This document shows positions 5,220 through 54,787 of a stretch of DNA of 64,000 nt, piece after piece. This stretch comes from Periconia sp. R9002 (taxonomy: Eukaryota; Ascomycota; Dothideomycetes; Pleosporales; Periconiaceae). The DNA lies in the NCBI GenBank assembly GCA_023627715.1, contig JAMAHW010000001.1, forward strand, positions 1,302,001-1,366,000, in the 5' to 3' direction. Both the position numbers and the translations under genes were made by a program. Position 1 is the first letter of the stretch. The number at the start of each line of letters is the position of its first letter. The notes under the pieces were generated by a model. The model saw only the letters and a list, made by a program, of their open reading frames with translations. It ran no database searches and was not told where the DNA came from.

Positions 5220-5504
5220 ACGGTGCGTTACATCATTGGGTTGGCAAAAAGAGAACATTTACAAGGAATTTGAAACCCCCATACAGGGTACAACTGTATT
5301 GTGAGCTAATCACAAAAGGCCTGTTCATGGAAAAAGCCTTGTCTCTTTTCTTGGTTGTCCCGTTCAAGGAGAGGTGGTATGTGCAAAAAACTACAGGAGG
5401 AGAAACACGTTCATAACACCAGAACATATGATAGCAGTTTCTTTCAGGATGGGTACGGAGGTACTCCACATACTATTTATATCCGTACCACCCTAACGAT
5501 TACG

Positions 5505-5527
5505 GTGGTGATGATGATATTCATCAT
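5505..5527. repeat. GAT/ATC inverted repeat, Array I
   Basis: GATGATGATATTCATCATT in this span is a near-perfect inverted repeat, the first clear copy of the element found once per unit. Confidence 0.55.
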
Positions 5528-6645
5528 TGCTACTATTCTCATAGCACAACGAAAAACAAAGACCCAAAATAGACACGCACTGAGTCTCGAGAAAACCGCA
5601 CTCCATAACTTCGGTGGGTGATTTGTCTGATAGAGATACTGTTTAGGAATAATTGAAAGAACTGTGCGAGAAAGAGAAGGGAAAGGGGGGGTTGGGTGCC
5701 TATTTATATTATTAAGCGTTACGGGTAGAGTCATGCTTCAAACTGCCAAGGTGTTGCATGACCAGTTGTAAAGTGAATGATGCTAATGACCGTCTTCATC
5801 ATCGTGAATGCTTCTAGAATTACATACAGACAACATGAATCACACGCACTGCCACATGTTCCACATTTTGTGGGGTTTCGACAATTTCTGCGCCCCATCC
5901 CACTCATGGATCCAACATTTTGCTGGTGTGAGGAAACCAAGGAACATCCTTCGGAGAAGAAAAGCAAGTATTTATACTAATAAGGAACTGACGAAAGAGA
6001 GTGAATGAAAACGCAGAACAAGAATGAAAACGCAGAACGAGCAGCCCTACCTGCCGTTAGCAACGATGATGCCGTTGATCATTGTCTACACCTCCACCAA
6101 ACACTAAGATATACGCTCCAACAGCAAACATGAGATGCTAGCTCGGAATATTTAAAAACGACCACCCCCAGCCACATGAGCTGACGGGCGTAAGTTTTTG
6201 AAACGAAGAAAGCAGAAAGAACAGAAACCGAAGGGAGTGTGGAGAGAGAAATAGAAGAGAGGGAATGCGGTGCTATTTATACCATAGTCATCAGGGAAAT
6301 AGCCATTGGGAGTGATACTAAGAAGCAACCGATTCTGAAATCATTGTGGTAATGATGATTCTCATCATCATTTTGCCATCCCGAGAAATGAGATATGGCC
6401 TTGCAATCAGCACTTCGAAAAAAGCATGATATGAGGGAAATGCGCGGTTGACCCGAAACCATGTAAATCGCTGGGTAGAAATTTTGAACCTTATGTTTTA
6501 CAATGAGGCAACTAGAGAAAAGAAGTTGGTGTGAAGAAGTGGAAGATGAGAGGGGGGACCGAAGAATATATATATGCATAGATTTCTCATTTAGGGTTAG
6601 CCGTTGATGCTTGATTCTATAAGCAAGGAAAGGAATGTGACAAAA

Positions 6646-6657
6646 TGATGATCATCA
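6646..6657. repeat. Perfect 12-bp palindrome TGATGATCATCA, Array I
   Basis: This copy has no loop, so it is a perfect DNA palindrome. Other copies have loops of 3 to about 9 nt. It could be a dimeric protein-binding site or an RNA hairpin. Confidence 0.6.
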
Positions 6658-9600
6658 TCACCAGATGCTAACGACAAAGTTTTTCGAAAACATGATAACA
6701 TGTTATATAGGCACTCATCTCATTCGATCATTTTAGATATGAACGGACTGTCATACATGACGGATATTCAAGGTCTGATTTTGAGAAATGGCATACAAGG
6801 TGTGCGGAGAAGCCGACGTGAAGGGGAGGCTACGTAGTGGTATTTATGTCGTATCTCATCCAGGTAGGTAAACGAAGAAGCTAGCCAAATAATGCTACGT
6901 AGATGATGATACCCATCATTATTTCGAATGTTAAACAATATTAGATCGTCTATGGGATACAGAAACAATCGTCTTTCTTGCATAATCAAACAGTACCGAA
7001 CGTTTTTAGAATCAACCACGGCAACCACGCACATATCCATTCCTCGGATATCCTTCAAAGTATCTAAATCTGACATGTATGAATGGAAACGTTTGTGAGG
7101 ATACGTGAAATCACGAGAAAATTTATATAAAACCCAGGCAAAGAATGACTAAGGCAAATACGCGATAGCGATCAAGACGCTGGTATACATCATCGTCGCC
7201 ATCACCAATTTTCAGGGTTTCATACTTAAACAAATTCCAGATCAGTAGAAAATGGGACGTACGAGGACTAATCTACGGTTTGGTCTAAGACTGATTAATG
7301 AGCGATGGAGAATTTCATTATCATTATCAATTGCGAATGCGAATTTCACGCAGTGAAAAATGAATGGCAAAACCACATAAGTGGCCACATGGATCAGTCA
7401 AAAATGATCAGAAAGAGACACATGTCCACATTTCGGGCATTGGAATTTTGAGGAACCTTTCTGTTTCTTTTAGTAGATAATAGACGAGTGTCGCATGCAT
7501 AAAGAAGGATAGACAAAGAAAACGACGATAAAAAAAAAGCTATATGTGTACCTTCCTAAAGCCCCTCAAGGTGATAGTTTACTAATTCTGTAAGAAAAAG
7601 GTGAATAGGGCTCAGGTTGGGGCGTTAATGATACTCATCATCGCTGTTTTACAGGATATCAAAACTGAGATTCTGGCATGCAGGGACAGGTTGAAAAATC
7701 ATATTGAATGTTCGAAAAACCGAGAGAGCACACATAAAGGGTATTGGGTACACATTTTTTATTCGACAAAAGTAAAGAAAATAGCAGAGTGTAAAGAGAA
7801 GAAGAAGAGACAGAGTAGCAAGATGCAGGTATTTAAGCCACCCCATGCAAGCCTTAGTAAGTGTCGCCAAGCAAGCATGACAGAGAGTGTATGTATACAT
7901 TGAATAACGACAGTAGTGGTGATGAAATTTATCATTATCGTGAAACTAAAATTGTACCTCATGAGTCGAAAGTTGAAACAAGCTGGCCATGATTGCAGTT
8001 GCTCTACAACAGACACATCATGTGCTTTCTGTTTAAGTTCTGAATCCGCCGACGCAAGAACGGCCCATTGATTGTAGAAGGTATATCTTTTTGTTTTATT
8101 GCACCAGAAACACAATAGTCCGTGGAGAAATAGAAAGAAAAAGGGGCTAGAAAAGTTGTATTCATATGCACCATCCCACTAGTGCTTAGCAAGAGCGTAG
8201 GTAGGTAATGGTGGTGGTTCTCATCATCATTATCCGGCCAAACTTCCAGTCCAAGACATTCGACGGGGAGAAACAGACGGACGGATTAGGAGGGTTCCAA
8301 AACACGAAGACATAGGCAATGAAGTTTGCATGTTTGAGACCAGGAGAAAGAGAACATGTTCTTGTCTTCTCGGGTTTTTAGTTCTATGATTGGGGATTAA
8401 GGCTTGAGGTGAGTGCGAAAGGAAGAAACGAACGAGAAGAGGAGGTATCTTTTATACACAAGGCCACGCACGGTCCCTTATAGCCACACCACTAGAGAAA
8501 GAATCAGAATACCGTCACGTACAATGATAATGCTGATAACCCTCATCATCACTGTGCATTGCAAAGACCCCAACACCAAACTTCAAAAACGACGGACAAA
8601 CATGGACTTTTCTGCATTTAGAGTCAACCTCATCGAAAGGATTGAGAGCTTTTCTGAACCTGCAAACAACAAGACCACATGCGTTAACATCACAAGGTAT
8701 TTTGGTCCCGTGAATGGGGTCACAGGAGTAGTGTGAAGAAAGAAAAGGTCGAGGGAGGAAGGGGAGAGCGGGCTTTTTATATCCATTACTGAGCAGGTGA
8801 CAGAAGAGTTGAGTCAGCATTCGATCATGGAGATGACCTGAGGAAGTTAGAACATGCTGTTGACGATGCTCATTACCGCCGTTAAACTCTTTATGCAGCA
8901 AAGAGCAAATACTAAATGCCTCATAGTTTCGAACTCCCGCAGGTCGCAGGCGCACATATTATTTGTTCCTCGCCGTTATTTTAATTCCCCCACCCCAAAA
9001 TCCCAGCAGTGCAGCGTGAAAAAAAGGAAGGAAGAAAAGCAACAGAAGACAAGGTATTTATACACCTATCGACGAGGAGTTTCTTACGTAATAGCTGATC
9101 CAATCTGTGTGGAAAAGATGCTGGTGACGTTGATCATCATTGTCGACGTCACGAACGTCTCCAAGGGATACCAAAGTGTGCGGAACAGATAGACGCTGCG
9201 CAGAAACACACACGTCGAAAAGATCTATGCTGCGTTTGAGGACGCGCTGCCAGCCGGCACTCATGATCCAATGGTTGGTGCAGTTTTTAAAGGAAGAACA
9301 GCTGCAGTGGCTAGAAAGAGAGAGGAAAGTAGGAAAGTGGAATATTTATATATACTGCCAAGCAGGAAACCAGCCGGAAAGTTACTAAGCTTATGCAAAA
9401 CGAGGGTGTACGAGTAGTTGGTGATGGTGAGGATGAAGTTCGTCATCATCATTAGTGGTTTCGAAAATCACTGGCACATGTTCATGTAGGTCAGTTTCGA
9501 AAACGGGCATGTAGAAACGCGAGAGCACAGAGAAAACATAATCAACTGTGCTGTAATTTTTCATATGAAATCCCCCACCACTGCCCCAAAAGAAGACAGT

Positions 9601-9903
9601 AGAATGCAAATGTGTAGAGAAGAAGAGAGGAAAAGGGGAGGCATTTATATGCAGCACCAGACAATATTTTATTAAGCTGGTACCGGCACAGAGCATAGAG
9701 GGGAGACTACATGTATACGAGGAATACTAGTGACGACGGTGATCTTTCTCATCATCATCGCTATCGTTTAATCCAAAAACATCACGTACAGAAGCCCTGC
9801 CCCCTCCTCGCCCGAAACACAAAGCATACGACGTAAACCTTTTGGCTTTTTAATCCCTCCTATCCCCGTAAACCAGAGACAGGAAGCAAATCTGCCCCCA
9901 AGC

Positions 9904-9980
9904 GTGTGAAGAAGAAAAGAAGAGAGAAGAGGAAAAGAAGGAGGTATTTATAGACGAGGCAGAACAACGAATTAGTAATC
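9904..9980 (+). promoter_or_regulatory. Exemplar unit leader, Array I (purine tract, TATA, TTAGTAA)
   Basis: One of the best preserved leaders. GTGTGAAGAAGAAAAG begins an almost pure purine run of about 40 nt. TATTTATAG follows at 9945 and ATTAGTAATC at about 9971. Spacing of TATA to the third element is about 25-30 nt, typical of TATA to transcription start. A promoter reading is inference from this layout; no transcript evidence is available here. Confidence 0.5.
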
Positions 9981-10031
9981 AAGAAGAAGGAGAGCGATGG
10001 AAAACCGATGATGACGACGAGGGCGACGGTG

Positions 10032-10048
10032 GTGATGATGTTCATCAC
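10032..10048. repeat. Inverted repeat GTGATGA-TGT-TCATCAC, Array I
   Basis: Seven-base arms are perfectly complementary around a 3-nt centre, about 60 nt downstream of the TTAGTAA element of the same unit. Confidence 0.6.
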
Positions 10049-10272
10049 ATATTGCTCGAAACCCGAAACACACCCACACCCACATAACGGGACTGTGCAA
10101 AAGGTGGGAAATGGAGAGGACGCAAGGAACACAGAGGACACAACACAAACATTGGAGATTTGCTTGCGTCTTTTGACGGGCCCGCCTCTCCCGCTCATGT
10201 GAAAGTAGTGTTGATCTTTAAAATTAAGACCTACCACTGCCTTTTACAGCAGTAGCGATACCCTCGCCAGAC

Positions 10273-10345
10273 GTGTGAAGAAGAAAAGAAGAGGAAATCG
10301 AGCAAAGAAGGAGGCTTTTATACATAGTGGTTAGCCACGGTTTAG
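10273..10345 (+). promoter_or_regulatory. Exemplar unit leader, Array I
   Basis: Its first part repeats the 9904 leader closely: GTGTGAAGAAGAAAAGAAG, a purine tract ending GGAGG, CTTTTATAC at 10315 and TTTAGTAAGC at about 10332. The close match between neighbours indicates recent local duplication or gene conversion. Confidence 0.5.
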
Positions 10346-11678
10346 TAAGCAAGTACAGCTTTTCGAGTGTCTGGCAGGGCGAGGTAGATGTTGAGAATGA
10401 ATGATGATGATGCTGATGTTCATCGTTGGGCGAAATCGAAAAGGTCGCACATGAGTAGAGCAGTGCAGAGTTTGAAACAAAATAGATGAGTTAAAAAGCA
10501 CCAAAACACATAGAACCATTGTCTGGCAGTTTTAAAAACCCCACTCACATGTCTATGTTGTGTTGGGTTTTTTTTAAGAAGCAAATTCTCAAAATCGACA
10601 GAAGTCGCACATGAGCAGAACAGTCTAGGGTTTTGAATAAAGCCCGAGTTCCAACACACAAGACATACTGGTGTTTCCAGATTCGTTTGATACCGCCGCT
10701 CATCGATATCTTTGCAAGAAGTTTTTTTTACTAAATATTTCCCCCCAAATCAAGTTTGAAGAAAAAGGAAGAAAGGAAGCCATGCGATGAGCGACAGAGG
10801 TTTATATACCCGTGTCCCTTAGCTGAAACTTAGTAATCAGCTCCATATGTCTATATCTGTACCCATTCTGGAAACAGATAGAGGCTGGTAGTAACAACGA
10901 TAACGTTGATGAAAATCATCGGCATCCAAAACCCAAAAAGAAACAGCACAACATGTAGCTCAGTTTGAAAGTCTTTTAGTCTTTTAAACGAAGTAAAAAA
11001 TTTCGAGAAAACGACGCCAACATGTCGGTTTCGGGATGCTTGTTTAAATGATAAACGAAGTAGTTTATCCAGACAGCACACCCCGACATAAAAACAAAAC
11101 ACCAAAAATTTGAGTGAAGTAGTGATTCCACAGAAAACACCACCCACACACATATTCGTTCAAGTGGAATTTTTTTAGATCCGGCACCCATAAGCCGAAC
11201 TGGTACCCCGTTTGACACACCCAGCACACGCACACCCACACACATGCGTCCTGAAGGCTAGGATTTTAGAACCACCACCACCCACCACCCATAATCCGCA
11301 TCCTCAGGGTTTTTTAAAACATCCACCACCCTCCGAAAAGAGCAGCAGACAACCCACCCCAACCTCCCCGACCCGTGTGTAAAGAGAAAAGAAAAAGAAG
11401 GAAGAACGGAGGGAGAGAAGGGGGTATTTATATGCGTTGGGGACAGGGGGCTTGGCTAGTCAATGTGTATGAGAGGCGGTGTGGTGTTAGTGTAGTGTAG
11501 TGTTCGTGACGGTGATGATGATGATGATGATGATGATGACGAAAGTGGTGACGATGATGTGCATCGTCGTTACTTTTTCTTTGATTGAGGTGTTTCATGT
11601 GCTGGGAAGGACTTTATAGTACATGTACATACAAAATAATACGAAATGATACAACAATCCCCACTCAAACTTTGAAAT

Positions 11679-12914: not shown

Positions 12915-13047
12915 ACGACGTATTCGAACCTACGAACGGTCAATTCACATGCATGCAAAGCACGGCTGAAGCTCACTTCTGGTTTGTACGTATAAGGGAT
13001 GTTTTTTATTGACTATGAACTATTAGAATGCGGAATTGCTACTGATT

Positions 13048-34944: not shown

Positions 34945-35420
34945 AATAGAAAGAAATGCACGTCCAAACTACACTTCACCACCCTAATATTCTAGAGCGA
35001 CAATGTCTCCTCCAGAGTAGAAAACAGAAGATGGCAATAATGACGAGTCTCATCATCACTAACACCCAACTTAAAAATAAACTAAACACTCACACATGAG
35101 CTGCCCCCGTACATGAGTCCAAGACCGCAACGCCCTCGACATCCGTTGCTCCTCCGTTTTTTTCTTTTTTCATCTTTTTGTAGTAAACACCCACACCCAC
35201 AAATCGGCCCATACATACTTTTATCCGGCATTTTTAAACAGCACACTCCAACACAACCATCAAAACCTCTGCTGTTGTTTTCTTAAATAACAACACTGAC
35301 AAACAAGCATAGCATCTTTATCATCCCACTTTTCTTTTTTAAAAAAAAAGGCAGACAGCACACTCCAAACCAGCACATATTTCAATTTTCTCGTTGGTTT
35401 AATATAACGCCCACACCCAC

Positions 35421-35482
<62 letters not shown>
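35421..35482 (+). repeat. (CAA)n trinucleotide microsatellite
   Basis: About 62 nt of uninterrupted CAA/ACA repeats (about 20 copies) inside the left part of Array II. It produces a spurious poly-Leu frame on the minus strand. Confidence 0.95.
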
Positions 35483-35483
<1 letters not shown>

Positions 35484-36889
35484 CATGAAACTGGTTTTCA
35501 GAGATTTATTGTAACATCCACACCCACAAAATTCAAACACATGATATTAAAGTATACCGATTTTAAAATGGTGGGCGATAAGGTTCAAACCAGCACATAA
35601 TACCAGTCCTTAGCAAATTTATTGTAACACACCCACAAAACAACAGCACATAAAACCAGCTCTCGTAGGATTGTTGTAACACCGCCACCCACAAGACGGC
35701 AACACATGGGATGGTTGTTCATGAATTTTATTATAACACCGCCAATTCCAAAAACCAAACACATGTAATAAATGTAGTAGCGCTTTTTGAAAAAGGTAGC
35801 CGAAAAGCTCCAAACCAGCACATAAACTGGTTTTTGAAAGCTTTATTATAAAACCGCCATCCACAAGGACCAAACCTATATAATGTGGTCCTTCTTTGTT
35901 TTGAAAAACGAACATGTAGCTACCCACAAGCTCCAAACACCACATCATGGGTCGGAACAAGCATTTCTTAATGATCACACCCGCACGCAACCAAACCCAT
36001 ATCTTGTTGCAAATTATCTTTTTGTTCGAGGTGGAATCCCTCTAAATAGTTCAAAAATAAGTATCTAATGTTAATTTTTATTGGAGAAAGGGAGATGCAG
36101 CTAAGCTACACACAAATTCCGAACACCACATCAGGGGTATTTATAGGCTTTTTGATGATCACACCCACACGGAACCAATCGCATGTAGGTGGTATACTCT
36201 GATTTGAAAAAGGGAGATGTAGCTTAACTACCGACGAGCTCCGAACACCGCGTGGGGTCAAACTCGGGGTCTTTTAGATGATTACACCCACAAAAACCCA
36301 ACCACATATATCTTGGTGGACTATGATTTTTAAAAGGGACATGTAGCTATCCAGAAGTTCCAAACACCACATGGTATTGTATCAGCTGTGTTCTAATGCC
36401 CACACCCAAACGGAGCCAAACCCATGTGATCGGCTGAATACACCTCTTTTTTGAAGAAGATGTCCAAGATGTTCCAAACACACATGTAATAGCATATTTC
36501 GCGTTTTTGATAACCACACCCACACGGAACCAACACATATAGGCTTCCCTCCGAGGTTTGAAAAAATGGATATGTAGCTACCTATAAGTTCCAAACGCCA
36601 CATAATTGCATGTTTTTCACAGTTTTTTAATGACCACACCCACAGAATCAACACATCCGGATCTCCCCTGTTGATTTCAAAAAACACTCCTTCAGCCTCC
36701 GAACCAGCACATGCTCTCTACGTACCGGTAATTTTGTCAAAAGTTCCTCACGAACCAAAACACATATGCTATATAATAGTTGCCTCCTAATTTAAAAAGT
36801 ACTCTCACACTCCAAGCAAAGACATTAAGAACAAGGAAGTGACATTTTACAAAATACACACACAGGTTACTACACATAGACTTTTAATA

Positions 36890-38100
36890 ACGTATCTTTT
36901 AGAGAGAATTTCGTAGACTCCTGAATCGGCACATCGCGACTAGCTAAGAACAATTTTATTAAAAGTTCTTCACAAACCAGGACACATATTCTGCCATCAA
37001 CAATTCTTTAGATAGCAGTCCCGCAGTCTCCAAACCAGCACATACCCACCATTGTTGCATACTTTTACTAAGCACACACACACCCGTAGGGTTTCACACA
37101 TAACCCTTCGAGCACGTACTTTTTAGATAGGATCCCGCGGACTCCCGAACCAAGACATGCTGGGCATTTATGGTAGCTTTCTTCAGAGGAGACAAATATG
37201 TACGAAGTAGTACATGTTCTTTGCCATGACGCGCTTATTGGCCTGACTTTCGTGGACTTCCGAACCAGAACATAGAGTTCCTAGTATATTTCTTCCGGAA
37301 ACAGGAAATTTGTACAGAGTAGTACATGTTCTGAGACATATTTTTCGCTCTCATTAGATTTCTGTAGAGTCCGACAGACCGCATCAACCTCAGTTGATAG
37401 GCCTTTTGTTAAACGCTCCGCACGAAGCGGCACATCCAAGATCCCATTGAAGGTTCCTGGTGAACTAGCACACATGTTTTTTACCATAATGGGTTTTTTG
37501 CCCTGATTTTCATGGATTCCGACACACCGCATCTCGCGACTTTGTTCGAAGTTCCATTAAATTCTTCCGGCAACGTGGCACTTATGAGCCTCCGATGTGG
37601 GGTTTCGGAAAAGGGACTCGCGGACTCCGAGCCAGCACATAGACCTCTGTGTGTGGAGGTTTTGTTCGAATTTTCTAGCGAATAGGCACACATATTTTAT
37701 TAATGTTTGTCTTTTGAATAGGATGTCGCAGACTTCGAGCCAGCACATGATTTTAGCGTTATCCGGGTTTTGTTAAAAGTTCCTAGCGAACCGGCACATG
37801 TGAACTCTACGAGTGCCATTTTTAGATACGGTCTCGCGGACAGCAAAGCACCGCATATATATATATCTAATGGAATCTTTATCAAAAGTTCCTGGCGAAC
37901 CGGCCCCCGTGGGTTCTCGGTTTCATCTTGTTTAGATTGAATTTGGCGGACAGCAAAGCACCACATAAGAACCTAGCCAGTCTGATTTCTAGTCAAACGT
38001 TTCCTCGCGAACCGGCACACATTATCCGGGCCCCATTTTTGTTTAGAAAGGGTCTCGCAGACATGGGAAACTTCTCTGTAGCCTATTTAATGACCACACG
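36890..38100 (+). repeat. Dimeric higher-order repeat within Array II
   Basis: Two module types alternate here. Type A carries TCGCGGACTCCGAACCAGCACAT-like sequence after a TTTTAGATA block. Type B carries AAGTTCCTAGCGAACCGGCACA-like sequence after a TTTTGTTAAA block. Clear A copies lie near 37120-37160, 37600-37640, 37720-37750 and 37830-37850; clear B copies near 37660-37690, 37770-37800, 37880-37910 and 37995-38020. The dimer is about 110 nt, and the inserts after each copy differ. Confidence 0.65.
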
Positions 38101-39423
38101 CACAGAAACTACCACATAAATTTTGTTTCTGATTTCTTTAGATGTATCCCACAGACTCCAGATAACTACCTAGGACAGCTCCAGTGTTTGCTTTCGTCCC
38201 CATTTTCTCCTTTTTTAACACCCGCACACGCAGAACAGGCACACATGGTTCGTTGATCGACACGTTTTTTAGTACGTAATCTTACACGCTGTAAAGCAGC
38301 CGCATGCTGGAGGTTTACACCTGTTTTAAAACTGCCAGATACACACGAACGAACATACCCGAGCTTGCAAACCAGGTTTGGATGACATAGCTCACACGCA
38401 ATCCAGAACAAGGCCATGGGTCAATCTCTTAAGAGTTTTTCCTTTGAGAGAAACGAAGATCTTCCACAGACAAGCGCATGAACTGAAAGTGAGGGCTGTT
38501 TTTTGGAAGTAGTTCACATCCACACGCTCCAAACCAGCACATTCTCTTTGTTGTCAAAAATGTTTATTTAAGGAGCATTTTCCCACAAACCAACATAAGT
38601 AAACCTTAGTCCAGATTTTAGCGAGATATCCCGCACACAGTCCAGAAACAAGAACATTCAGTTCTTTTGTCGAAATTTTTCTAAATAGAGATTTTCCACG
38701 AACGAGCATATTGAAGATCATCATTGTTTGTTTTTAGGAAATACTTCACCCCCACACGCTCCAAACCACCATGTGAGGATCCTGTCTCGAGCTTCTGTTT
38801 TAAAAAGGGATTCCCTACGGTAGAGCACATAAAAAAAGTATGTGCTGGGTTTTTTAGAGAGTACTCCACATATATACGCAAAAACAAATCCATATAACCT
38901 TTCAAACTTAGGTGATGTTTGAAGGCTCCTCCCGAACCAGCACATCACATATTGCTGGGCGTGTTTTTTATTACTCCACACGCTTCGAACCAACACATGT
39001 CCGGTGACTTTGTATCCTTCAAAAATCCAAAGAACTTCCACACTGAACCGCACATAGAACTTTTTTACCACAGTTCTTTGAAAAGGGGTACCACACAGTA
39101 CAAAGTACCAAACATCTCATCTTTTGCCGTTCCTTTTTAATTAGGAGAAAGGATGCCAAGAAGCAGCTCATGGTCATTCATTCTGGTAGTCTTCGGAAAA
39201 TCATTCTAGACGATCAACGTCTGTACATGGGAACTGCAAGGCGATGTTTTTTGATTATGAGAAATGACTCTACGAGGCAGCACATAAGCCATGCTGTTTG
39301 GTTTCTTAAAAAGTCCCGAAGAGACTGTCTGAACCAACATATGCCGACTTTTCCTCGAAGGTTATAAAGAATGTCCCACAAAGCAGCACATGTGTCGGGC
39401 TATTGTGGAATTGAAAAGGATCT

Positions 39424-39439
39424 CCCCCCCCCCCCCCCC
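39424..39439 (+). repeat. C16 homopolymer run
   Basis: Sixteen consecutive C within one module of Array II. Its length may be affected by sequencing or assembly error. Confidence 0.9.
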
Positions 39440-42400
39440 AAAGGCCCGGAACAGCACATAGCCATAGGTTAGGTTCTTTTTAAAAAGTACCCTAACCACG
39501 CTCCAAACCACAACATTCATACCTCATCTAGGCGATTTTGTTTAAGAATTTCTTTACAAAATAACACATGTTTTTTTCGAGTATCGACTGTGAACGGTAT
39601 ACCAGACAGTCCACTCCTTCACATCCGATCAATAATCGTTAAGTGTTTTTGTAAAAAAGGATTTTCCCGCGACGCACCATACCAGTTTTGGGCGATTAGT
39701 TTTCGAAAGGTACCGCACACTCCAAACCACGACATGTTGCATCCCAATGCGTCTTTTCAATAATCACGCCCACAAACAAGCACATAACCTTAACGGCAGG
39801 GAAATCTTGTACAATCCTACAGATCTTATGTCTGACTTAAAAAGGTTTCCCACACACTTCAGACCATCCCATCGTTGGTGTCAATTTTTAAAACTCCCTC
39901 GCAAAACAGCAAATGACAAGGCCACTTTCAATTCTTTAACAGTTGCACACCATGACGGCTGATATTCTGGTTTTTTATGAACTTCAAACAGAACCACACA
40001 TGGACGGGGCTACTGTGCGATTTCAAGTACTACCTTCCAGCACACTCCACACCCCATAAATGTGGCGTCCGTCTACTTTTAGGTATTTTTTGTCTACTAT
40101 ACACGGGGTCATGTAATGGCCCTATTTGTCGTTTTATAAAAGAAGTATCTTGTATACTCTAAACTAACACGGGAAACATGTATAGTTTCTGTAATGTCTT
40201 TTTGTGAACGTTCACAGCAGAACCATACATCACTCGATTAGTATATGGCTTTTGAGAGTGTGCTAGGCACAGCGCAAACCACAACATGTCGTGATGCCAA
40301 GTTAGGTTTTTAGCAGAGTCCTTCTACGAAACGGCCCCGGTATCGAAGGAAGGTCCACAGCAGAACATAGATTCGACGCTATCCAGTTTTTACAGTCTTC
40401 CTTACCAACCGCACATGAGTAAGAGTTACCAAAATCTTGAAAGGTGTCCCACGCAGGGAATCATGTGCTAAGCAGACATCCACTTTGACTTGTTTTTTAC
40501 ATCTCCCGTAGATCCGCACATTGAAGGTTAAATTTCGGATTTTGAAAGGTACCCAAGCATAGTCAATACCACGGATGATTCTATCAAGTTGTTTATACAC
40601 TTGGCCAGAGAAACACACATTTAGAATTGGAATTTGGGGTTTTAAATGTATCTCACAGCACGGCGCAAACCAACACATCACTCCTCCCCCGTAGGCTTTT
40701 TTTTACGTGCCCTACAAACCACACATCAATTTTATTTGGCAGGTTATTTAAGAGGAGCCCCGTATTCTGAACCATTGATTCGTTCGCAAGTAGGTTTGAA
40801 AATCGTCCACACAAAGCAGCATATCCGTAGCCGAACCTGGTGTTTTTAAAAGTATCCTAGACACCCCACCATCAATTCGCTTTCATGAACTTTTCCGAAA
40901 CGTTCACACCAAGCATTGCACCACAGGTCGATGATCTTTAAAATGTAGTATCCACACACCCCAAAGGAAGACATCAACTTGATATGCTGTGGTTTGTAAA
41001 CTTCCGCACAAGATCGCACATGTAGAAGCACGAGCAGAAGTTTTAAAAAGGTACCACATACACACCAAACCATCAGAGTATTGACATGTAGTTCTATGAA
41101 CGTCCCACAAAACCACATGGAAGGCCTGGAGGAAAGTTTTGACAACGTATCACTCCAAACCAACACATACGAATTTCGAGGGGAGAGTTCCCACAAACCC
41201 ACACATTGTTCTTTTAGGGTTGTTTTTCCTTTGCACAACTTGTATTCATACACTTCAAAAATATTACATGACCACGTTCTCGAGTTGTTTGTTAATTTCT
41301 CCACAAACCGCATGGCCCACATCATTCCAAACTTTTACAAGACACCAATCCAAACCAACACATTATATGTGCCATAGTTGTTTCTAAAATCCCACAAACC
41401 AGCACATCCCGGATTGGTGTCGTCGATGTCAAAAGTGGTCTGTACAACCCAAAATCATCGGCAAATTGGTTGAATGTTTTTTGAAATCCTCCCACGAAAG
41501 CATACATAGCAGATTACCCTGGTTTTGAGAAAGAGCTCCACACTCCAAAGCAACACATGCGCGGACTGGGTGTGCACTTGTAATACTCTAGGGATTAGGA
41601 CATGAAATCATGTTACTGGTCTTTTTTTAAAAAAAAAGAAGTGTTCACACGTTCCAGAGCAACACATATATGCTTCCCAGCAATATTTGTAAGATTCCAC
41701 AGACCAGCACATTAGAAGGTTGATCTTGGTTTTTAGAGGTGTTAAAAACTCTGAACCAACATATACGTACGTTGTGGTTGGGATCTTCAAGTTCTCCATA
41801 AAACCAGACATGGTCTCTTTTGACTTTTTTATTAAGGTAAACTCCACATATTTTAAACCAGCACACAATATGCCGAAAAGTGTTCTGTTTGTAATCCCTC
41901 ACAAACCATCACATCAAGTTTTCCGGAAACATCTTTCCTCAATTTCCCACAACAACCAAACATTGAAGAGTTAAAGTGAAATTTTTGAAACGATCCACGC
42001 TCCAAACTATATTTGAACCGGAAGTTGGTTTTGAAATCCTACTTCCCAGCACATGGAATTGTACTTCCCAATTTTTAATGTGCCGTACACATTCCGCACT
42101 AGTACATGGATATATGACGATGTAGTTTTTGGAACCCGCACGAAGCAGAACATGAAATCTGTTCGGGATATTTTTGAGAAGTATCTCCCGCCCCAAAACA
42201 TATCGTTTGTACGGATGGGAGTTTGAGAATTCCACTCAAACAACCGCACATAGCTACCACTGTCACATGTTTGAACTCCACTGTTACTTGAAAGGTATGT
42301 CGTTTTGTATACAGTTTCTCTACAGAACCACACATCGTGATGGCACATGTCTCGTTTTTGTTTTGAGAAAGTATTCCACTCAAAACCAACAAAGACATTC

Positions 42401-43506
42401 ACATCTGCTTTCAGTTTTTGAAATCCTCCCTAGAACCAGCACATAAGCAGACCGTAGTAGATCTTCCAATGGAGTTCCATACCTCACATACCCACCCTCA
42501 TCCACCAACCAGTCCATCAAAAATTTCTCTTCAAAGTCTCAAACTTTCCACACTCCGAACCACCACTAAATTGGTGTTATTCCTTTTGAAGTCTTCCACA
42601 AAACCACGCATGACCCAGCAATGGCCGAACTTGAGAAGACACCCCATACTCAATCACAACAGATCGTAATACCCAGGCTTGTATTTTAGATACACACAAA
42701 GAACCAAACATGGGCATGGCGTAGGAGGATTTTCAAAAGAGCTCCACAAGTGGTTCACTTCACCACATGCCGCCTAGGCTTAGGGTTTTTAGGAACCACC
42801 CATCGAACAGCACACGACCTTTTTTTGTCCATCTTAATGGAGCACTCCACACCCCCGTGGATTGGTTTGATTGGATCTTTCACACGAACCAGCATATAAA
42901 ACAGGTGGCTTCATGTTTTCAAAAGGTTGCCGGCACAAAACGCAAGTGTTCGTAACGTTTTACAAACATACCCCAAAACCAACACATGGTTCATTCCGGA
43001 ATTCATTTTTTTGGGTCTCCCTCAAGTTCGCACATGTACGAATGCACCCACCCGTGTGGGAAGAAAAGAAGAAGAGGAAAGGAGAGAAGGAGGAGAAAAG
43101 AGGGGGTTTTTATACTTGATTTCTGGGGCTGCTGACTAAGATAGCCCTTCACATGTAACTGCGTCTTATTGGTGCATATCGCTAGACTATGCAGGTATGT
43201 TCTTCCAGGTACAATGTAATATCGAGATGCCACGTGGCGTAGCGTATTGAGACATTCATCAATCATTATATCACCCCTAGTTGAGTTAAGCTGACTTCTT
43301 TACCGCGAATTTTAGGTGTAGATGTCAATGTGGTGGCGGTGGTGGTGATGGTAGTAATGATAAACCTCATCATCACCGTTTTTTGTCTACCCGAAATGTT
43401 TAGGCATAAGCGCACGACAATGCGGCAAACTCCACCCCAGCACACGTAGCTATTGATGAATGCATTTTTGTAGAAAGTCCCCGCACGAAACCGTATCAAT
43501 CCACTC

Positions 43507-43615
43507 GTGTAAAGAGAAAAGAGAGGAAGGGGAAGACGGAGTAAAACGATCCTTATATACCCTTCCTACGTACTGGCTGACTAACCCACCTTGATTCCCA
43601 CCTCTCTCTTAGCAG
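43507..43615 (+). promoter_or_regulatory. Exemplar unit leader, Array II (also intron-like)
   Basis: GTGTAAAGAGAAAAGAG opens the purine tract, CTTATATAC is at 43552, and GGCTGACTAAC is at about 43575. A pyrimidine-rich stretch then ends in TTAGCAG at 43615. The TATA box fits a promoter, but the branch-like CTAAC, pyrimidine tract and CAG also make a good fungal intron 3' end. The GTGTAAAG at the front is only a weak 5' splice site. Confidence 0.45.
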
Positions 43616-44496
43616 TGTAGATCTTGTAATGTATGTATCAGTTGATGGCGATGAACCTCATCACTAACGCTCATCATCATCATCATCTACGCTTTCCTCG
43701 AAACTGCCTACATTCAATCTCGGGTTATCGTTTTTAGACAACCACACCCACAAATCGAAAGCTTAGTTCCTCGTTTTTAGAACGAGTTCCCACATGCAAA
43801 GCCCACGACCACACATTTCGACGTCGTAGATTTGTTTTATAAAACAACACTTACAAATCCCCCACCTGTGTAGAGAAAGGAAGTGAAAGCGGAAAAGAGG
43901 GAAGCTTTATATACTTCTGAAGACGGTAGAAAGGCGAATGCTGCTTACCAATGCACAGTTCCACGATTGCTTATACCTTAATGGTTGAGGTATGTGGAGG
44001 TAGTGATGGTGATGACGTCTATCGCCACCGTTATCTGCCTACCCGGACTGCATATACGTGAAAATAGGACATGTTAACCAAATTAGGCTGCGTTGATGTA
44101 TAGACACCACATGCACCTTTTGAACTAAAAATTTAAATTCCGCTTTAGCACCGTAATCTCCCATAAGTAAAGGAGAAAGAAGAAGGGACAGAATAGGGAA
44201 AGGGTTTTATATGCCCCCATTGAATGTAGTTGCTTACTAATATCCCCTCTCATACTTGGGCTCTTCTTAGTGTATAGTTTTTGGAAGGTATATGTATGTA
44301 GTGGTAGTGATGTTTATCACCAACGCTCATCACCATTCTATAAATACCTAAAAAAGCTCTGCATGAAATCGTGACCTATGGGCGAGGTACACATACCGCA
44401 TGCTTGAATCTTTTTTTTTACGAAGACAACGATTCCCACAGACCACTCATGAGTGAAGGTTTTGGGTTTTTGTTTGATGTAGCACACCCTACACCT

Positions 44497-44603
44497 GTGT
44501 AACGAGCAAAGAAGAAGAGGGAGGGGTGAGAAGAAGGACCTTTAAGTAGTTGTGTAATGTGGTTGCTAACTAACGCACCTTCCACCTACTGTTCTCTTTA
44601 CAG
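44497..44603 (+). promoter_or_regulatory. Exemplar unit leader, Array II (also intron-like)
   Basis: GTGTAACGAGCAAAG opens the purine tract; the TATA position is degenerate (CCTTTAAG). CTAACTAAC is followed by a pyrimidine stretch ending CTTTACAG at 44603. The total of 107 nt is close to the 109 nt of the 43507 unit. Confidence 0.4.
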
Positions 44604-45248
44604 TCGACTTGATGTTTGAATTATGTATAGAGTGGTGATGATAACGCTTGTCACCACTGTTTCATACCTCCCACAGAACTGCATACATAAGAATGTAGGA
44701 CCACTCCACGTAGTTCTAGTTCGGTCTCATGTTTTTTGGTAGTTACGGCAAGTCACACTCCACACCAGCACATAAATGCTTGTTGAATTGTGTTTTTGTT
44801 CTTGAACTTCTCCTGCTCATTTGCTAACTTGCGCGAAGAGAAGCAAACAGGAAAGCGCAGAACAAGGGTCTTTATACAGTTGATTACTATGATTGCTTAC
44901 TAACATACCTTTCTACAGTTCGAAGTATACACATGTAGTAGTGGCGGTGATAGGATTCATTACCAACGCTTATCACAACTCTTTCTCTTTTTCGAAACTG
45001 TGCATGCATGAACGTGGGAAAGTACCACCCGCATAGGGTATCTCAACTCTTTCTTTTTTATAAGACAAGACGGGCACTCCAGGCCAGCACATACTTGCTC
45101 CTCGCCGTTGGCTCTATTAGAATATTCCTCCACACAACTCCTCCATCTTTGTACAGAAAGGAAGAAAAGAGGCGGAGATGAAGAGATGCTTATATACTTC
45201 TGTGGGGTATCGCTTAGTAAGGTACACAGATATAAATACAGAGGTAGC

Positions 45249-45263
45249 GGTGATACTCATCAC
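45249..45263. repeat. Inverted repeat GGTGA...TCACC, Array II
   Basis: Arms GGTGA and TCACC flank a short centre in GGTGATACTCATCACC. It lies about 60 nt after the TATA box of the last unit of Array II. Confidence 0.55.
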
Positions 45264-45693
45264 CACCGTTTTCTACCTATGTGAAACAGCTACCGGTGAG
45301 GGTAGGTCAAAGGTCAACCCACATCTGTATTCTTGGTTCCTATTTTGAAAACGGCAGACATGGAAAGGCTCGAGTTCAATTTCTTATCGAAGGAAAGCCG
45401 CACTCCAACAGCACATAATCCTGCGTCTTACTTATTTTGAAACTCCACATGAGTGTAGCAAAGTCCACGCACATGTGTTGTTCAATCTCGTTCTGTTTTC
45501 AAATGAAAAGAAGGCGCACACTCTAATCTCTGCAGCATCCAATTCTCTTTTTTTTTCCAACAGCCATGTATATCCACTTATCTGAAGACTGATTTACACG
45601 ACATGGAGGATGGTCTGCATGAAAGGACCGGTCATGCGGACTCTGCCAGTAGTCAGGATAGCCCAGAACATGTACCAAGACGACGACTCCCTT

Positions 45694-50559: not shown

Positions 50560-51573
50560 TAGTTACAGGAATATTCGATGATGATCATTGTCACCCTACC
50601 AATACTGACTTATCTATCCATGAAATTGCAATTTCAAAATCCAAGCTACGACATTAAACATGGATCAAGAAAAGCAAAGGTTCTAATGCCGCCCACCTCT
50701 TCCCTCCAACAACCATGAATTTCCAATGGACGGTATTTTAGACTACCTCTCTGAACCAAAGTACAAGTGAGGAGGAAAAGAGAAGAGTACAACGAGAGAG
50801 AAATCTTCATATCTACTTCCACTACCAATGATTACTAAGCTATACGAAATCGGCGTAGCTCAGCGGTAAAGAAGTAAGGGTTGCGATGGTGGTGAGGATC
50901 ATCATCGTTATCAGCTTATTGAAAGCCTTACTTCCATGGATTGTACATTCCGAACTTCGGGGTTCGAAAACACCGGCCACACCACATGTAACATCGTTTG
51001 ATATTTTTTTGAAAGTAGCCCCTGAGGTACACCCACCCACGTATGCGAAGAAAAAAAGTGTAGAAGGAGAAAAGAGATACTTTTATACTCACGTCGATTC
51101 CTGCGGATTACTCAGCGACGCCGCTTGAGATGTCCGTTTCAATGAGTAGTGATAATGATAAGCATCATCGCCATCACACGCACCAAAACCTGGGTACCCA
51201 TGAACAGCATATCTCACCACTCGAGTTATACGGCTATACCTGAAGGCTAGAGAAGATGTTTTGGAACCGCCGAATACTAACATTTTATTTCGCAATTTCG
51301 AAAATGGGAAACCCAGGTTCTCCTATTTGCCTACTTGCACTTTTATTACTCCGCTAAGCGGTTTTCGATGCGCATTGATTATCATCATCATCACCATCAT
51401 CACCATCATTGTCATCACTTCAGTCAAGTAACAATGCAGCGCTTTTCTGTCAGACATGAATTTTCGAAAAGCTAGAACATGAACAGGACCAACACAAACC
51501 ATGTGACATGTTTGATGTGATTTTTAGTAAACACACCCCACCACCTACCACATCAGGCAAGAATTCATTTCAC

Positions 51574-51650
51574 TGTGTAGAGAAAGAAAAAGGGAAGCAA
51601 AGGACAACGCAGATCTTTATATACCCTGTTGTGCGGTCGCTTACTCATCT
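51574..51650 (+). promoter_or_regulatory. Exemplar unit leader, Array III
   Basis: GTGTAGAGAAAGAAAAAGGG begins the purine tract, TTTATATACC lies at 51616 and GCTTACTCATC near 51639. The order and spacing match Arrays I and II, which shows that the three arrays share one ancestor unit. Confidence 0.5.
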
Positions 51651-52200
51651 TTCATCATCTTCTACCCTCCAAACATGGGAAGGAAACGATGATGAGTATC
51701 ACCACCGTCTTTCTACTCTTCCCATCGAGCATATCCCCTATCTTGACGTCATTTTCGAAAAACACAACGCCAGCCACATGTGTATTGTCAATCTCAATTA
51801 CTGCACACACCAAACCACCTCCACAACCAAGAGGGTAAAGAAGAGAAGAAGGGAGAGCAGAAAAGAAGTCCTTATATACTCCTCTGAACACTTGCTTACT
51901 AATACCTTGCCACTTTGTTCGGCGTACAAACGTGTTGGCGGTGATGAGAGTTAGCAGCATCACTGCTATTATCATCATCGTTCTAGGAAATGGTGCTGGT
52001 CCATGAGTTTTCAAATTCCAAAAGCAAAGACGGACATGATATGGTTATATCTCTGGTTTTAGACATGACACACAACAGAACACTTATGTGAAGGAGAAAG
52101 AAAGACAGAGATAGGGGAGGATTATATACTGTTTAGGCCGGAGCTCCCTACTAGCGTATTGTTCCCCCTGTACTTGTTAGTTTCAAAAGAGCGCCAAGCG

Positions 52201-52229
52201 ATGGTGATGATGATACTATTCATCACCAT
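52201..52229. repeat. 10-bp-arm inverted repeat, Array III
   Basis: ATGGTGATGA and TCATCACCAT are perfectly complementary arms separated by 9 nt. As RNA this would make a 10-bp hairpin; as DNA it is a symmetric protein target. It is the longest clean copy of the unit's inverted repeat that I found. Confidence 0.65.
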
Positions 52230-54787
52230 CGTTAGAATCTTCTTACAATCTTTCAAACACCGAAAGGTCAACTATATGTACATGATTCTTGTGATTTTTA
52301 AAGCGGCTACATGCTGAGCTACATGTATCCGTGTAATCAAGGAAAGAGAAGAATGAGGGTATGAGGGGGGTTTATATACCATTTCCATATCCAAAGGTTA
52401 GTCAGAAACAACGCTGTAAAAATATGATAAGCGTAACGACGACGACGATCATCATCATCTCAGTGTCCCGTCAAAAACGCAATTCATGCAGCGGGGTCTC
52501 GACAGTTGCCAAACACCACACCCATTGCCTTTCTTAACTTCATCATTTTGGACAAGCACAATCCTCCTGCAAGACACCCATATATTCGTGTAGAAAGAAA
52601 GGAAAGAGGAATAGCAGGCGGAGAAGGGGAGTTCTTATATACGTACATCTACCCTGTAAGCTATTCACGTATACAAACACGTGTCCTTACTCTGTCTACG
52701 CAGTCCACTGTGAGCCGTACGAGTTTAAGATATGATAATAACGATGGCACCCACCACCATCACTGTATGACATCGGATTCTTACATTCGGCTGAACTTGA
52801 GAAAGTTCATGAGTTTAAGTTTCGCGAAATGAGCCGAGCCCTCCACATGCGTCATAGACCATACGATTTCCATTAACTATAACGCAGAAAGCAAACCAAG
52901 TGTGTAAGGAAGAAAATGTAGAAACAAAAACGATCCTTTATATACCCTCTGCAGATTACTAAGCCACATACCTATATGCGTATATTCCACTTACGTCTGT
53001 TCACCATAGAACGTTGTACTCTGTGGCGATGATAAATATCATCATCTCTCCGAATCCAAAACATGGACAAATGTGCTGATATTTAGAATACCGAACAGAC
53101 CAGTTCTCATGCGTTTCAATATCTACGGTTTTCGGAACTATGTGCCTTTCGAAACACCACAGACATGTATTCGGATTCAGCTTCTTTTTCCATTGCGCCT
53201 CCACACCACGTGAACATCATCTGCTGTATTTTTTGAAACTCCCCATTAGAATCGATTCCCGCGTGTGGAGAAAGAAAGAGAGTATCAACATAGAGACAAA
53301 CGAGCTTCTTATACCACGTCCATCCCTGCGGATTACTCAGCGATGTAGGAGTATGCATGTACGTCTTTACCGCGTGGTGATGTTAGGGGATTGCTTGGTG
53401 ATGATGCGCATTGTCGTTATCGTTGCGCTTTACAAAAAACATTGTTCATGAGAGTAGCTTCTAGCATCATTGGTGTTTATTTAGCGCACACACCAACCAC
53501 AACAGGATCATGCCACCAATTATTGGCCCCTTTTTATACTCCTCTCCACTAAACCGCACCCACATGTGTAAGAAAAAGAAGAGCGACGGAAGAAGAGACA
53601 GTCTTATTTATACACTTCCTACCACACCCGCAGATGACTCAGCTTCTGCTTCCTAGGCATGCGTATATAAGTTTTTAGATTTTACACGATAACAACGATG
53701 GTCATCATCATCACTACAGTTTCAAAACGTTCTTGAAGTCCGAATTTCGACAGAAGCAGAGCAACCCACATCGAACTTCAGATGCCTCCTTTTTGACACA
53801 CCTTTACCTCTCAGCCCACCATGCCCTACTCCCTGCGTGAAAGGAAAGAGGGAAGTTAAGGAGGAGCAGAAGGGTATTTATATGCATGCTCCAATTTGTA
53901 TGACTAATCGCAGATGGTATGCCTGTGCCGTGACCAAGTTATTGATCGCTTGCGAAAATAAGAACGCTTTTAGCAGCAAATGGTAGGTAGGGTTGGCGGT
54001 GTAAGGCACTGTCATCATCATTTTATGTCATGGGAATTGGTTACGAAATGACAGCATGAGCCAGGAAATTTCATGAATCATGGTCTACGTAAAATTCATA
54101 CCACGCGAACATAGCGCTTGATATTGATTTCTTCGGCGGCTATGTCACAAGAAGGAACATATGGCTATTCTTTCCAATGTTTTTAGGCTTAATTGCGGCA
54201 TGTTAAAAGAAACTCAACAGTAATTCCCCGTTCTCTAATACTCTTTAAATCGGTGATGATGGTTTTCATCACATCTACTCAACTAGAAATGTTAAATGCC
54301 ACATGTTTCGTCGCAAAATTTTATAATAAAACGAACCATTGTACCGCCATACAATAGCCCGCCGAACCCTCCACATATGGCTCGTGCTCTTGCCATTTTG
54401 AATTCCAGAAACCTAAAACCACTCACACTTCGTGTGTGTAGAAAGAATAAGAAAGAGAAAAGGCGGGAAAGAAGTTGACTTAAATATACGTTTCTAGACT
54501 GTTGCTTACTCACCCACATTCTAACGCTAAACGGCTGTCTCCCCCCTGAAGCGAATGTAGTGGTGATGATGTTCGTTATCATTGCTCCCGTTAATAAAAA
54601 ACTTCGCTTTTATTGTTTCAGTTATACACCAAAATCGGGGGTTACAACGTCTCTCTACCCCGGACGAACGATCTTTATCAATGAACATGACCAGACAGTT
54701 GTGCATCTAATGTATCCAATTCACCGTTCTACATCACTCTGGTAAACCTTTTTCAACTCTATCCCCGGTCTCGCATAATATCCCTAC

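What the first reader, a model, noticed from the sequence alone, without database searches (positions are those of the whole stretch)
5220..54610. Three co-oriented arrays built from one unusual unit (purine tract, TATA, TTACTAA, inverted repeat, CACAT modules)
About 38 units occur in three gene-free blocks (5.2-11.6, 35.0-45.5 and 50.6-54.6 kb), all in the same direction and separated by conserved genes. Element order and rough spacing are kept while sequence drifts, which suggests constraint on the elements. I know of no fungal satellite, transposon or RNA gene with this layout.
Basis: seen in the sequence. Interest (0 to 1): 0.85.

Follow-up and report, generated by a model that had tools for sequence, protein, structure and literature searches.

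The report
Fungal arrays of snRNA-type promoter units
A filamentous fungus carries, at several places in its genome, long rows of roughly 300-base units that each look like a complete switch for making one short non-coding RNA, built like the switches of some of its splicing-RNA genes; if they are active, this is an unrecognised family of fungal RNA genes.

Summary
On the MINUS strand each unit resembles a Pol II promoter: palindrome (~87 bp upstream), TTASTMA (26 bp upstream), TATAWAWR, ~35-nt CT tract, start site, then a two-box module (A-box, ~20 nt, ATGTG+GT-box) in the presumed transcript. TTASTMA upstream of TATA occurs in 75 of 181 units, in 4 of 8 U1/U2/U4 genes of this genome, and at 0 of 51 other TATA sites. 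At least 8 array loci exist; 181 units lie in the fetched DNA, one direction per segment. A module profile learned at 35-43 kb exceeds 6 bits in 130 of 178 units on the sense strand, 21 antisense, 42 reversed. The stretch 35.0-43.0 kb has no promoters but ~115 modules, period ~54 bp. The modules look non-coding, no Rfam family reached threshold, and the snRNA 3' box is absent. Best reading: tandem arrays of short non-coding Pol II units with snRNA-type promoters. Transcription and function are inferred. Literature searches (open-access library, listings) showed no fungal counterpart.

The parts
5220..11600 (-). Array block 1: 16 promoter units with E<1, lower-coordinate ones more degraded
35000..45560 (-). 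Array block 2: 7 promoter units (43.0-45.3 kb) plus the module tract and flanking modules
50560..54600 (-). Array block 3: 12 promoter units
35000..43050 (-). Module tract: 113-117 copies of [T5-6 A4 - ~20 nt - ATGTGCTGGTTTGTGG], period ~54 bp, no promoter unit with E<1 inside
   Evidence: 117 hits on minus, 13 on plus, 39 in the reversed sequence (profile fitted to the minus strand); 113
5668..5764 (-). promoter core (weak)
   Evidence: E 0.14
5922..5977 (-). promoter core (weak)
   Evidence: E 0.12
6241..6291 (-). promoter core (partial)
   Evidence: E 0.0034
6529..6621 (-). promoter core (weak)
   Evidence: E 0.1
6801..6892 (-). promoter core
   Evidence: E 0.0044
7784..7877 (-). promoter core
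   Evidence: E 3.9e-4
8115..8195 (-). promoter core (not among the hand-picked units)
   Evidence: E 7.3e-4
8402..8492 (-). promoter core
   Evidence: E 5.1e-6
8729..8801 (-). promoter core
   Evidence: E 4.1e-7
9009..9109 (-). promoter core
   Evidence: E 8.5e-7
9303..9383 (-). promoter core
   Evidence: E 1.4e-4
9616..9684 (-). promoter core
   Evidence: E 2.6e-5
9893..9982 (-). promoter core
   Evidence: E 9.6e-7
10271..10362 (-). promoter core
   Evidence: E 6.4e-8
10760..10846 (-). promoter core
   Evidence: E 2.6e-6
11383..11458 (-). promoter core; first promoter of block 1 on the minus strand, palindromic GATGATGA sequence upstream at 11510-11567
   Evidence: E 2.2e-5
43050..43166 (-). 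promoter core that faces into the module tract
   Evidence: E 3.7e-10
43502..43600 (-). promoter core
   Evidence: E 2.7e-11
43868..43961 (-). promoter core
   Evidence: E 1.7e-6
44160..44269 (-). promoter core
   Evidence: E 2e-9
44490..44592 (-). promoter core
   Evidence: E 2.9e-8
44831..44920 (-). promoter core
   Evidence: E 2.7e-8
45151..45237 (-). promoter core
   Evidence: E 9.5e-9
50769..50851 (-). promoter core
   Evidence: E 1.4e-6
51043..51145 (-). promoter core
   Evidence: E 9e-10
51570..51657 (-). promoter core
   Evidence: E 2.7e-11
51828..51924 (-). promoter core
   Evidence: E 5.3e-11
52072..52178 (-). promoter core
   Evidence: E 5.3e-6
52335..52420 (-). promoter core
   Evidence: E 2e-6
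52588..52696 (-). promoter core
   Evidence: E 5e-7
52904..52986 (-). promoter core
   Evidence: E 2.1e-4
53259..53366 (-). promoter core
   Evidence: E 1.6e-8
53556..53671 (-). promoter core
   Evidence: E 3.5e-7
53832..53924 (-). promoter core
   Evidence: E 2e-6
54435..54529 (-). promoter core; first promoter of block 3 on the minus strand, palindromic sequence upstream at 54558-54582
   Evidence: E 1.2e-9

Best explanation
The blocks are tandem arrays of autonomous Pol II transcription units on the minus strand, each about 290 bp long. A unit's promoter consists of a GATGATGA..TCATCATC-type palindrome ~87 bp upstream of TATA, a near-palindromic TTASTMA element most often 25-27 bp upstream of TATA, a TATAWAWR box, and a ~35-nt CT tract ending at a start site 31-42 nt after TATA. 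This is the promoter layout of half of the U1/U2/U4 snRNA genes examined in this genome. About 30 and 55-60 nt into the presumed RNA sit an A-box (TTTTYTAAAA) and, ~20 nt on, an ATGTG + G/U-rich box; near-fixed spacing and strand bias point to an RNA-level element (protein-binding site or early 3'-end/termination signal). I think each promoter makes a short, C-poor, non-coding RNA whose sequence may drift while promoter and module are kept, so an array yields many different short RNAs under one control; this resembles, by analogy only, nematode piRNA clusters with snRNA-derived promoters. Shown: anatomy, spacing, strand bias, several loci, match to snRNA promoters. Inferred: direction of transcription (from sequence alone), that they are transcribed at all, RNA length, and any function.
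For: 181 units (E<=0.1, array strand) in nine fetched segments; opposite-strand hits at E<=1 were 3, all E>=0.49 (HMM iterated on the same DNA). GTGTRAAGAARRARRRRNRNR genome-wide: 48 hits vs 3 in the reversed control; 40 of 48 lie in arrays on seven contigs. TTTATATA-17/19-TTASTMA: 38 vs 2; 22 in arrays, 1 is the promoter of a U2 gene, 15 elsewhere with low-GC spacers (0.11-0.37, against 0.37-0.72 in arrays). TTASTMA at -42..-8 of TATA: 75 of 181 units (about 1 expected), 4 of 8 snRNA genes, 0 of 51 other TATA sites; chance P for 4 of 8 about 5e-8 if independent. TATA/CT tract/start layout matches A. nidulans start sites (PMC4046813, passages). Module profile from 35-43 kb: mean 9.8 bits sense, 0.4 antisense, 0.15 shuffled, 3.4 reversed; above 6 bits in 130, 21 and 42 of 178 units for sense, antisense, reversed. 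Box spacing 28-33 in 58 of 107 non-window units. Palindrome tied to the following promoter (SD 19.2) more than to the preceding one (SD 32.9); 76 of 142 units scorable.
Against: No transcript evidence at all. 4 of 8 snRNA genes do not show TTASTMA (one of them, L057, was not scored by the script; by eye it has TTACCTA), and 106 of 181 units lack an exact match. Two of the four snRNA matches have spacing 34, not 26. The snRNA 3' box TTTTCATTGA is in 0 of 181 units. Sm-like sites are in 16 of 181 units vs 8 in shuffles. RNA folding of whole units is barely better than shuffled (z -0.74 on -, -0.56 on +; 102 of 110 sampled units folded before the time limit). The module also scores above chance when reversed, so part of it is composition. 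The module position was sought only up to +170, which narrows its spread. TTASTMA is also the Yap1 bZIP site (PMC6545440, passages), so 'snRNA-type' may mean only 'bZIP-bound'.
Confidence: 0.6

Rival explanations
1. The units are remnants of a tandem repeat family that once spread and now only decays; promoter-like parts are the slowest to drift and nothing is made.
For: Units in block 1 become weaker toward low coordinates; palindromes without a TATA occur at the low ends of blocks 2 and 3 (by eye); only 75 of 181 units have an exact TTASTMA.
Against: Neighbouring units are on average 68% identical over the shorter unit in a gap-tolerant alignment (units of different loci 63%), none above 79%; neutral decay should not keep a TATA/CT/TTASTMA grammar at preferred spacing, nor a module with near-fixed spacing across nine segments.
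Confidence: 0.17
2. The arrays are DNA regulatory platforms: rows of bZIP (Yap1/AP-1-like) and palindrome sites that act as enhancer, boundary or factor sink, with no need for transcription.
For: TTASTMA includes the Yap1 sites TGACTAA/TTAGTCA/TTACTAA (PMC6545440, passages); palindrome stems give no clear RNA wobble signal (56 G-T vs 80 A-C mismatches on +; the A-C excess would be G-U on -, but it is small).
Against: Where present, TTASTMA sits at a preferred distance from a TATA followed by a CT tract, which a binding platform does not need; the A-box/GT-box module is strand-biased; the window blocks lie between ORFs that converge on them, so no neighbouring promoter seems to face them.
Confidence: 0.13
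3. One reading: purine tract upstream, TATA, TTACTAA as start site about 28 bp downstream, hairpin RNA, then modules.
For: A TATA-to-TTASTMA distance of 25-27 would also suit a TATA-initiator pair; TTASTMA and the palindrome are near-symmetric and carry no orientation.
Against: The TATA variants are canonical only on -; in A. nidulans the sense strand is pyrimidine-rich between TATA and start; in U1/U2/U4 genes of this genome the order is TTASTMA, TATA, CT tract, RNA.
Confidence: 0.06
4. The units are variant spliceosomal snRNA, U-snRNA-like or spliced-leader genes.
For: snRNA-type promoter layout; tandem organisation as in U2 and spliced-leader arrays elsewhere (abstract starts).
Against: No Rfam match at threshold; no snRNA 3' box (0 of 181); 5' splice-site-like GTAWGT near the start in 3 of 181 against 6 in shuffles; no conserved RNA sequence beyond the two boxes seen.
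Confidence: 0.04

Closest known systems
Spliceosomal snRNA genes (U1, U2, U4) of the same genome
   Same: In 4 of 8: TTASTMA (extended GMTTASTMAS) upstream of TATAWAWR or TATATATA, then a CT tract directly before the RNA
   Different: Single dispersed copies; conserved RNA; 3' box TTTTCATTGA in 5 of 8 genes, absent from 181 array units
Nematode type I piRNA (21U) clusters
   Same: Many short Pol II units in clusters, promoter motif derived from the snRNA promoter (PMC6436959, passages)
   Different: No Argonaute link or small RNA shown here; the nematode Pol II loci lack a TATA box, these have one; tandem spacing of ~290 bp in one direction; different motif
Tandem U2 snRNA and spliced-leader RNA gene arrays
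   Same: Tandem Pol II units each with its own promoter (listing and abstract starts only: PMC9138887, PMC1888695)
   Different: Those arrays encode one conserved RNA (recalled); here no RNA sequence is conserved between units beyond short boxes
Yap1/AP-1-responsive promoters
   Same: TTACTAA/TTAGTCA/TGACTAA sites (PMC6545440, passages)
   Different: I recall no array of such promoters and no fixed site-to-TATA distance; not searched for

Membership tests
snRNA-type Pol II promoter (this fungus) | TTASTMA upstream of TATA | tested here: met
   75 of 181 units, 4 of 8 snRNA genes, 0 of 51 other TATA sites. The control counted 3 of 70; all 3 were in L016, which lies in the window array, so L011-L016 were dropped. 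Met by the set, not by every unit or every snRNA gene.
snRNA-type Pol II promoter (this fungus) | TATA followed by CT tract and start | tested here: met
   (166 units); start sites themselves are inferred
Spliceosomal snRNA gene | match to an Rfam snRNA model | tested here: not met
   0 at gathering threshold in the window; in 37 kb of five other array pieces only two sub-threshold hits, mir-483 and SCARNA7
Spliceosomal snRNA gene | 3' box of this genome's snRNA genes | tested here: not met
   0 of 181 units; 5 of 8 snRNA genes
Spliceosomal snRNA gene | Sm site | tested here: inconclusive
   16 of 181 vs 8.15 shuffled; the same pattern finds it in only 3 of 8 true snRNA genes
Spliced-leader RNA array | 5' splice site near the RNA start | tested here: not met
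   GTAWGT in 3 of 181 vs 6.25 shuffled
piRNA/21U cluster | short capped precursors bound by an Argonaute | not testable with these tools
   no RNA data
Protein-coding tandem gene family | conserved reading frame | tested here: not met
   stop-free length from the module ATG 23.8/23.7/27.7 aa in frames 0/1/2, 79 units. Against: frame 0 is longer than in shuffled sequence, mean 24.6 vs 17.5 aa in 101 units, but the other frames are just as long.
General poly(A) signal of this fungus | module present at ordinary gene 3' ends | tested here: not met
   74 ORF 3' flanks: 1.26 bits sense vs 1.07 antisense; above 6 bits in 8 vs 5
Homogeneous satellite | high identity between neighbouring copies | tested here: not met
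   121 adjacent pairs, mean 0.68, max 0.79; none of the 8 Tandem Repeats Finder rows in the window is such an array

The most novel reading that the evidence does not exclude
A new class of fungal RNA genes: hundreds of ~290-bp units in co-oriented arrays at 8 or more loci, each firing a short, non-conserved Pol II RNA from a promoter of the type used by snRNA genes, with an RNA-level A-box/GT-box module that ends or packages the RNA; a fungal parallel to nematode piRNA clusters, perhaps kept below ~80% identity to escape repeat-induced mutation, and in one place expanded to an 8-kb stretch of ~115 modules.
Probability: 0.25. Interest if true: 0.92.

Novelty: new variant of a known kind. Interest (0 to 1): 0.72.

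Why it matters
If active, the arrays would be a large set of so far undescribed Pol II RNA genes in a Pleosporales fungus, and possibly a second, independent case of snRNA-type promoters being used to make many short divergent RNAs. They also give a simple grammar (palindrome, TTASTMA, TATA, CT tract, A-box/GT-box) that can be searched in any fungal genome, and a candidate fungal snRNA promoter element that can be tested directly.

Tried and rejected
Rejected: coding modules. ATGTG looked like a start codon, but in-frame stops are common and the three frames stay open equally long, although frame 0 is longer than in shuffled sequence (24.6 vs 17.5 aa). Set aside: an RNA hairpin as the meaning of the palindrome. 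Stems beat shuffles (57 of 179 vs 9 scoring >=14), G-T mismatches are not in excess (56 vs 80 A-C), and spacing ties it to the promoter (the palindrome was sought only from +120 on). Rejected: module as the ordinary poly(A) signal. Too small to be useful: orientation test on ordinary genes, 14 pyrimidine vs 4 purine runs upstream of 43 ORF starts, 3 TATA sites on each strand. Histone loci gave no clear parallel by eye. Led nowhere: Rfam; two exact patterns with 0 hits; a viral-contig scan with 1 hit, a chance match; the single purine-tract hits at C4 and C7 are not arrays, and the six other single hits (C21 twice, C33, C35, C37, C106) were not fetched. The 15-base module word with up to one mismatch had 48 genome hits against 19 in the reversed control; 12 lie in the window, the other 36 were not followed. 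Listing (471 hits, 112 control) was cut at about 100 rows, so the number of loci is a lower bound. Literature: searches are listings of an open-access library; I read passages only of PMC4046813, PMC6436959, PMC12566771 and PMC6545440.
Full report
Source. The window is C1:1302001-1366000 of a 42.9-Mb, 267-contig genome. Its Anp1/Mnn9 protein is 98% identical to Periconia macrospinosa and 96% to P. digitata, so this is probably a Periconia-like Pleosporales fungus.

The observation. A regular expression (purine-rich tract then TATA variant) found 28 sites on +, all in the three blocks, and none on -. A profile HMM from 35 hand-picked units found 35 hits with E<1, all on +: 16 in block 1, 7 in block 2, 12 in block 3; 34 are the picked units and one is new, so this is mainly a consistency check; the best opposite-strand hit had E 7.5. 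The stretch 35.0-43.05 kb has no such hit with E<1. It is a tract of 113-117 copies of one module (117 on -, 13 on +, 39 in the reversed sequence, with a profile fitted to -; 83 of 116 spacings are 40-69, commonest 50-59; 113).

Direction. On + the TATA elements read TATTTATA, TTTATATA, CTTTTATA; on - they read TATAAATA, TATATAAA, TATAAAAG, i.e. TATAWAWR. On - the purine tract is a pyrimidine tract from +9 to about +42 counted from the TATA start (166 units). A pyrimidine-A-C site follows at 31-42 nt after the TATA box in 112 of the 136 units in which one was found, out of 181. A. nidulans start sites have TATA 30-45 bp upstream, a pyrimidine-rich sense strand from -50, and CA as commonest start followed by C (PMC4046813, passages). 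I therefore take the units to face the minus strand; this rests on sequence alone.

More loci. In the same genome GTGTRAAGAARRARRRRNRNR has 48 exact hits against 3 for the reversed control; 40 of the 48 lie in arrays on C1, C3, C12, C15, C22, C49 and C60, the other 8 are single. I fetched parts of these and iterated the HMM: 181 units at E<=0.1 on the array strand (C3 35, window 31, C12 27, C15 21, C60 18, C49 17+16, C22 13, and 3 in a further array at C1:1158.5-1160 kb). Opposite-strand hits up to E 1 were 3, all E>=0.49. Spacing is 293 bp median, IQR 271-319, over the 142 neighbour pairs 230-420 bp apart. C49 and C22 were fetched only in part. The 15-base module word of the tract (one mismatch allowed) has 48 genome hits, 12 in the window and 36 elsewhere, against 19 in the reversed control; so the exact word is mostly a feature of the window.

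Same promoter as some snRNA genes. I examined 4 U2 genes (a fifth match below cut-off was not examined), 3 U4 genes and 1 U1 gene (below Rfam's cut-off but with an ACTTACCT 5' end). Two U2 genes carry TTAGTCA or TTACTAA exactly 26 nt before TATATAAA; U1 and one U4 carry TTAGTCA or TTACTAA 34 nt before TATA; in these four a CT tract and the RNA follow. Counted by script: 4 of 8 snRNA genes (L057 was not scored, its TATA failing a filter), 75 of 181 array units (about 1 expected), 0 of 51 other TATAWAWR sites in 173 kb of non-array DNA; chance P for 4 of 8 about 5e-8 if independent. The first version of the control had 3 of 70; all 3 came from L016, part of the window array, so L011-L016 were dropped. 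Genome-wide, TTTATATA-17/19-TTASTMA has 38 hits against 2 in the control: 22 in arrays, 1 at the U2 gene on C23, and 15 elsewhere, whose spacers have GC 0.11-0.37 against 0.37-0.72 in the arrays and 0.63 at U2. Those 15 were not fetched. In arrays the TATA-to-TTASTMA distance is 25-27 in 56 of the 123 units with at least 6 of 7 matching positions; exact matches at 20-36 number 70 of 181 against 4 for the reversed motif. TTASTMA also covers Yap1 sites (PMC6545440, passages); a bZIP reading is not excluded.

What lies downstream. From +54 to +75 C is 8-14% per column and 11-20% over the rest of the unit. A two-box profile (A-box, ~20 nt, ATGTG+GT-box) learned from the 35-43 kb tract scores on average 9.8 bits in the sense strand of 178 units, 0.4 antisense, 0.15 shuffled, 3.4 reversed; above 6 bits in 130, 21 and 42 of 178 for sense, antisense and reversed. 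One of the 178, the unit at 43109, overlaps the training tract. With spacing left free, 58 of 107 non-window units put the boxes 28-33 apart (30 in the tract). The module's ATG lies at +92 to +108 after TATA (IQR, SD 21.6; 101 of 142 units; sought only up to +170) and 93 of all 173 sense hits above 6 bits fall at +90 to +104, while its distance to the next TATA has SD 38.9. The palindrome is the reverse, 87 bp (SD 19.2) before the next TATA and loosely placed after the previous one (SD 32.9; 76 of 142 units). So I assign the palindrome to the promoter and the module to the transcript.

What it is not. Frames 0, 1 and 2 from the module ATG stay open equally long (23.8, 23.7, 27.7 aa), although frame 0 exceeds shuffled sequence (24.6 vs 17.5 aa). 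No Rfam family reaches threshold in the window; in 37 kb of other arrays two hits stay below threshold. The 3' box seen in 5 of 8 snRNA genes is in 0 of 181 units, and the module is not enriched at 74 ordinary ORF 3' flanks. Sm-like sites: 16 of 181 vs 8 shuffled; GTAWGT: 3 vs 6. RNA folding is weak on both strands (z -0.74 and -0.56; 102 units). Palindrome stems beat shuffles (57 of 179 vs 9), with 56 G-T and 80 A-C mismatches, no clear RNA signal. Neighbouring units are on average 68% identical over the shorter unit (different loci 63%, shuffled 37%, gap-tolerant alignment) and never more than 79% (121 pairs).

Setting. The three window blocks lie between ORFs that point at them from both sides: left of block 1 an APH-domain ORF on +, block 3 between a DUF3632 ORF on + and an AAA_28 ORF on -; the other three flanking ORFs have no Pfam match and are weaker evidence. 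At C12 the large right-hand ORFs also face the array; in C60 a 398-aa ORF lies inside the array interval. As far as ORFs show, no neighbouring promoter faces a window block, which argues against an enhancer role.

Mechanism. I judge most likely that each unit is an independent Pol II start on the minus sense, giving a short C-poor RNA whose A-box/GT-box at about +30 and +55 acts on the RNA, as a binding site or an early end signal. The promoter at 43.05-43.17 kb would then read into ~115 modules. Transcription, RNA ends and function are inference. The closest analogy is nematode piRNA loci, whose upstream motif derives from the snRNA promoter (PMC6436959, passages); nothing here shows Argonaute involvement. 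The thought that units are kept under 80% identity to escape repeat-induced point mutation rests on recalled knowledge and was not tested.

Noticed in passing
55768-61240 (+), about 1.2 kb from block 3: Consecutive + strand ORFs match RNA-dependent RNA polymerase (PF05183) and then SF1 helicase domains (AAA_11/AAA_12; best NCBIfam model IGHMBP2 helicase, below its cut-off); they may form one RdRP-helicase gene interrupted by introns.
   Followed up: partly
L044 (C23:183843-184089): This U2 snRNA gene carries an insert of about 54 nt with GTAAGT, CTAAC and CAG that L042 and L043 lack at the same point: it looks like an mRNA-type intron inside a U2 gene.
   Followed up: no
L044, L045, L055, L056, L057: Five of eight snRNA genes of this genome share a downstream TTTTCATTGA box, a likely fungal snRNA 3' signal.
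   Followed up: partly
C1:1158501-1160000 (L039): Another array of at least 3 units about 140 kb from the window, preceded by a stretch that by eye holds module-like sequence and no promoter, as in block 2.
   Followed up: partly
35421-35483: Perfect (ACA)21 trinucleotide run inside the module tract.
   Followed up: no
62575-63547 (+): Start of a polyketide-synthase-like gene (ketoacyl-synthase domain) near the right edge of the window.
   Followed up: no
C6:789-809 kb and several short contigs: Many TATA-TTASTMA pattern hits with AT-rich spacers cluster here; they may be repeat-induced-mutation regions.
   Followed up: no
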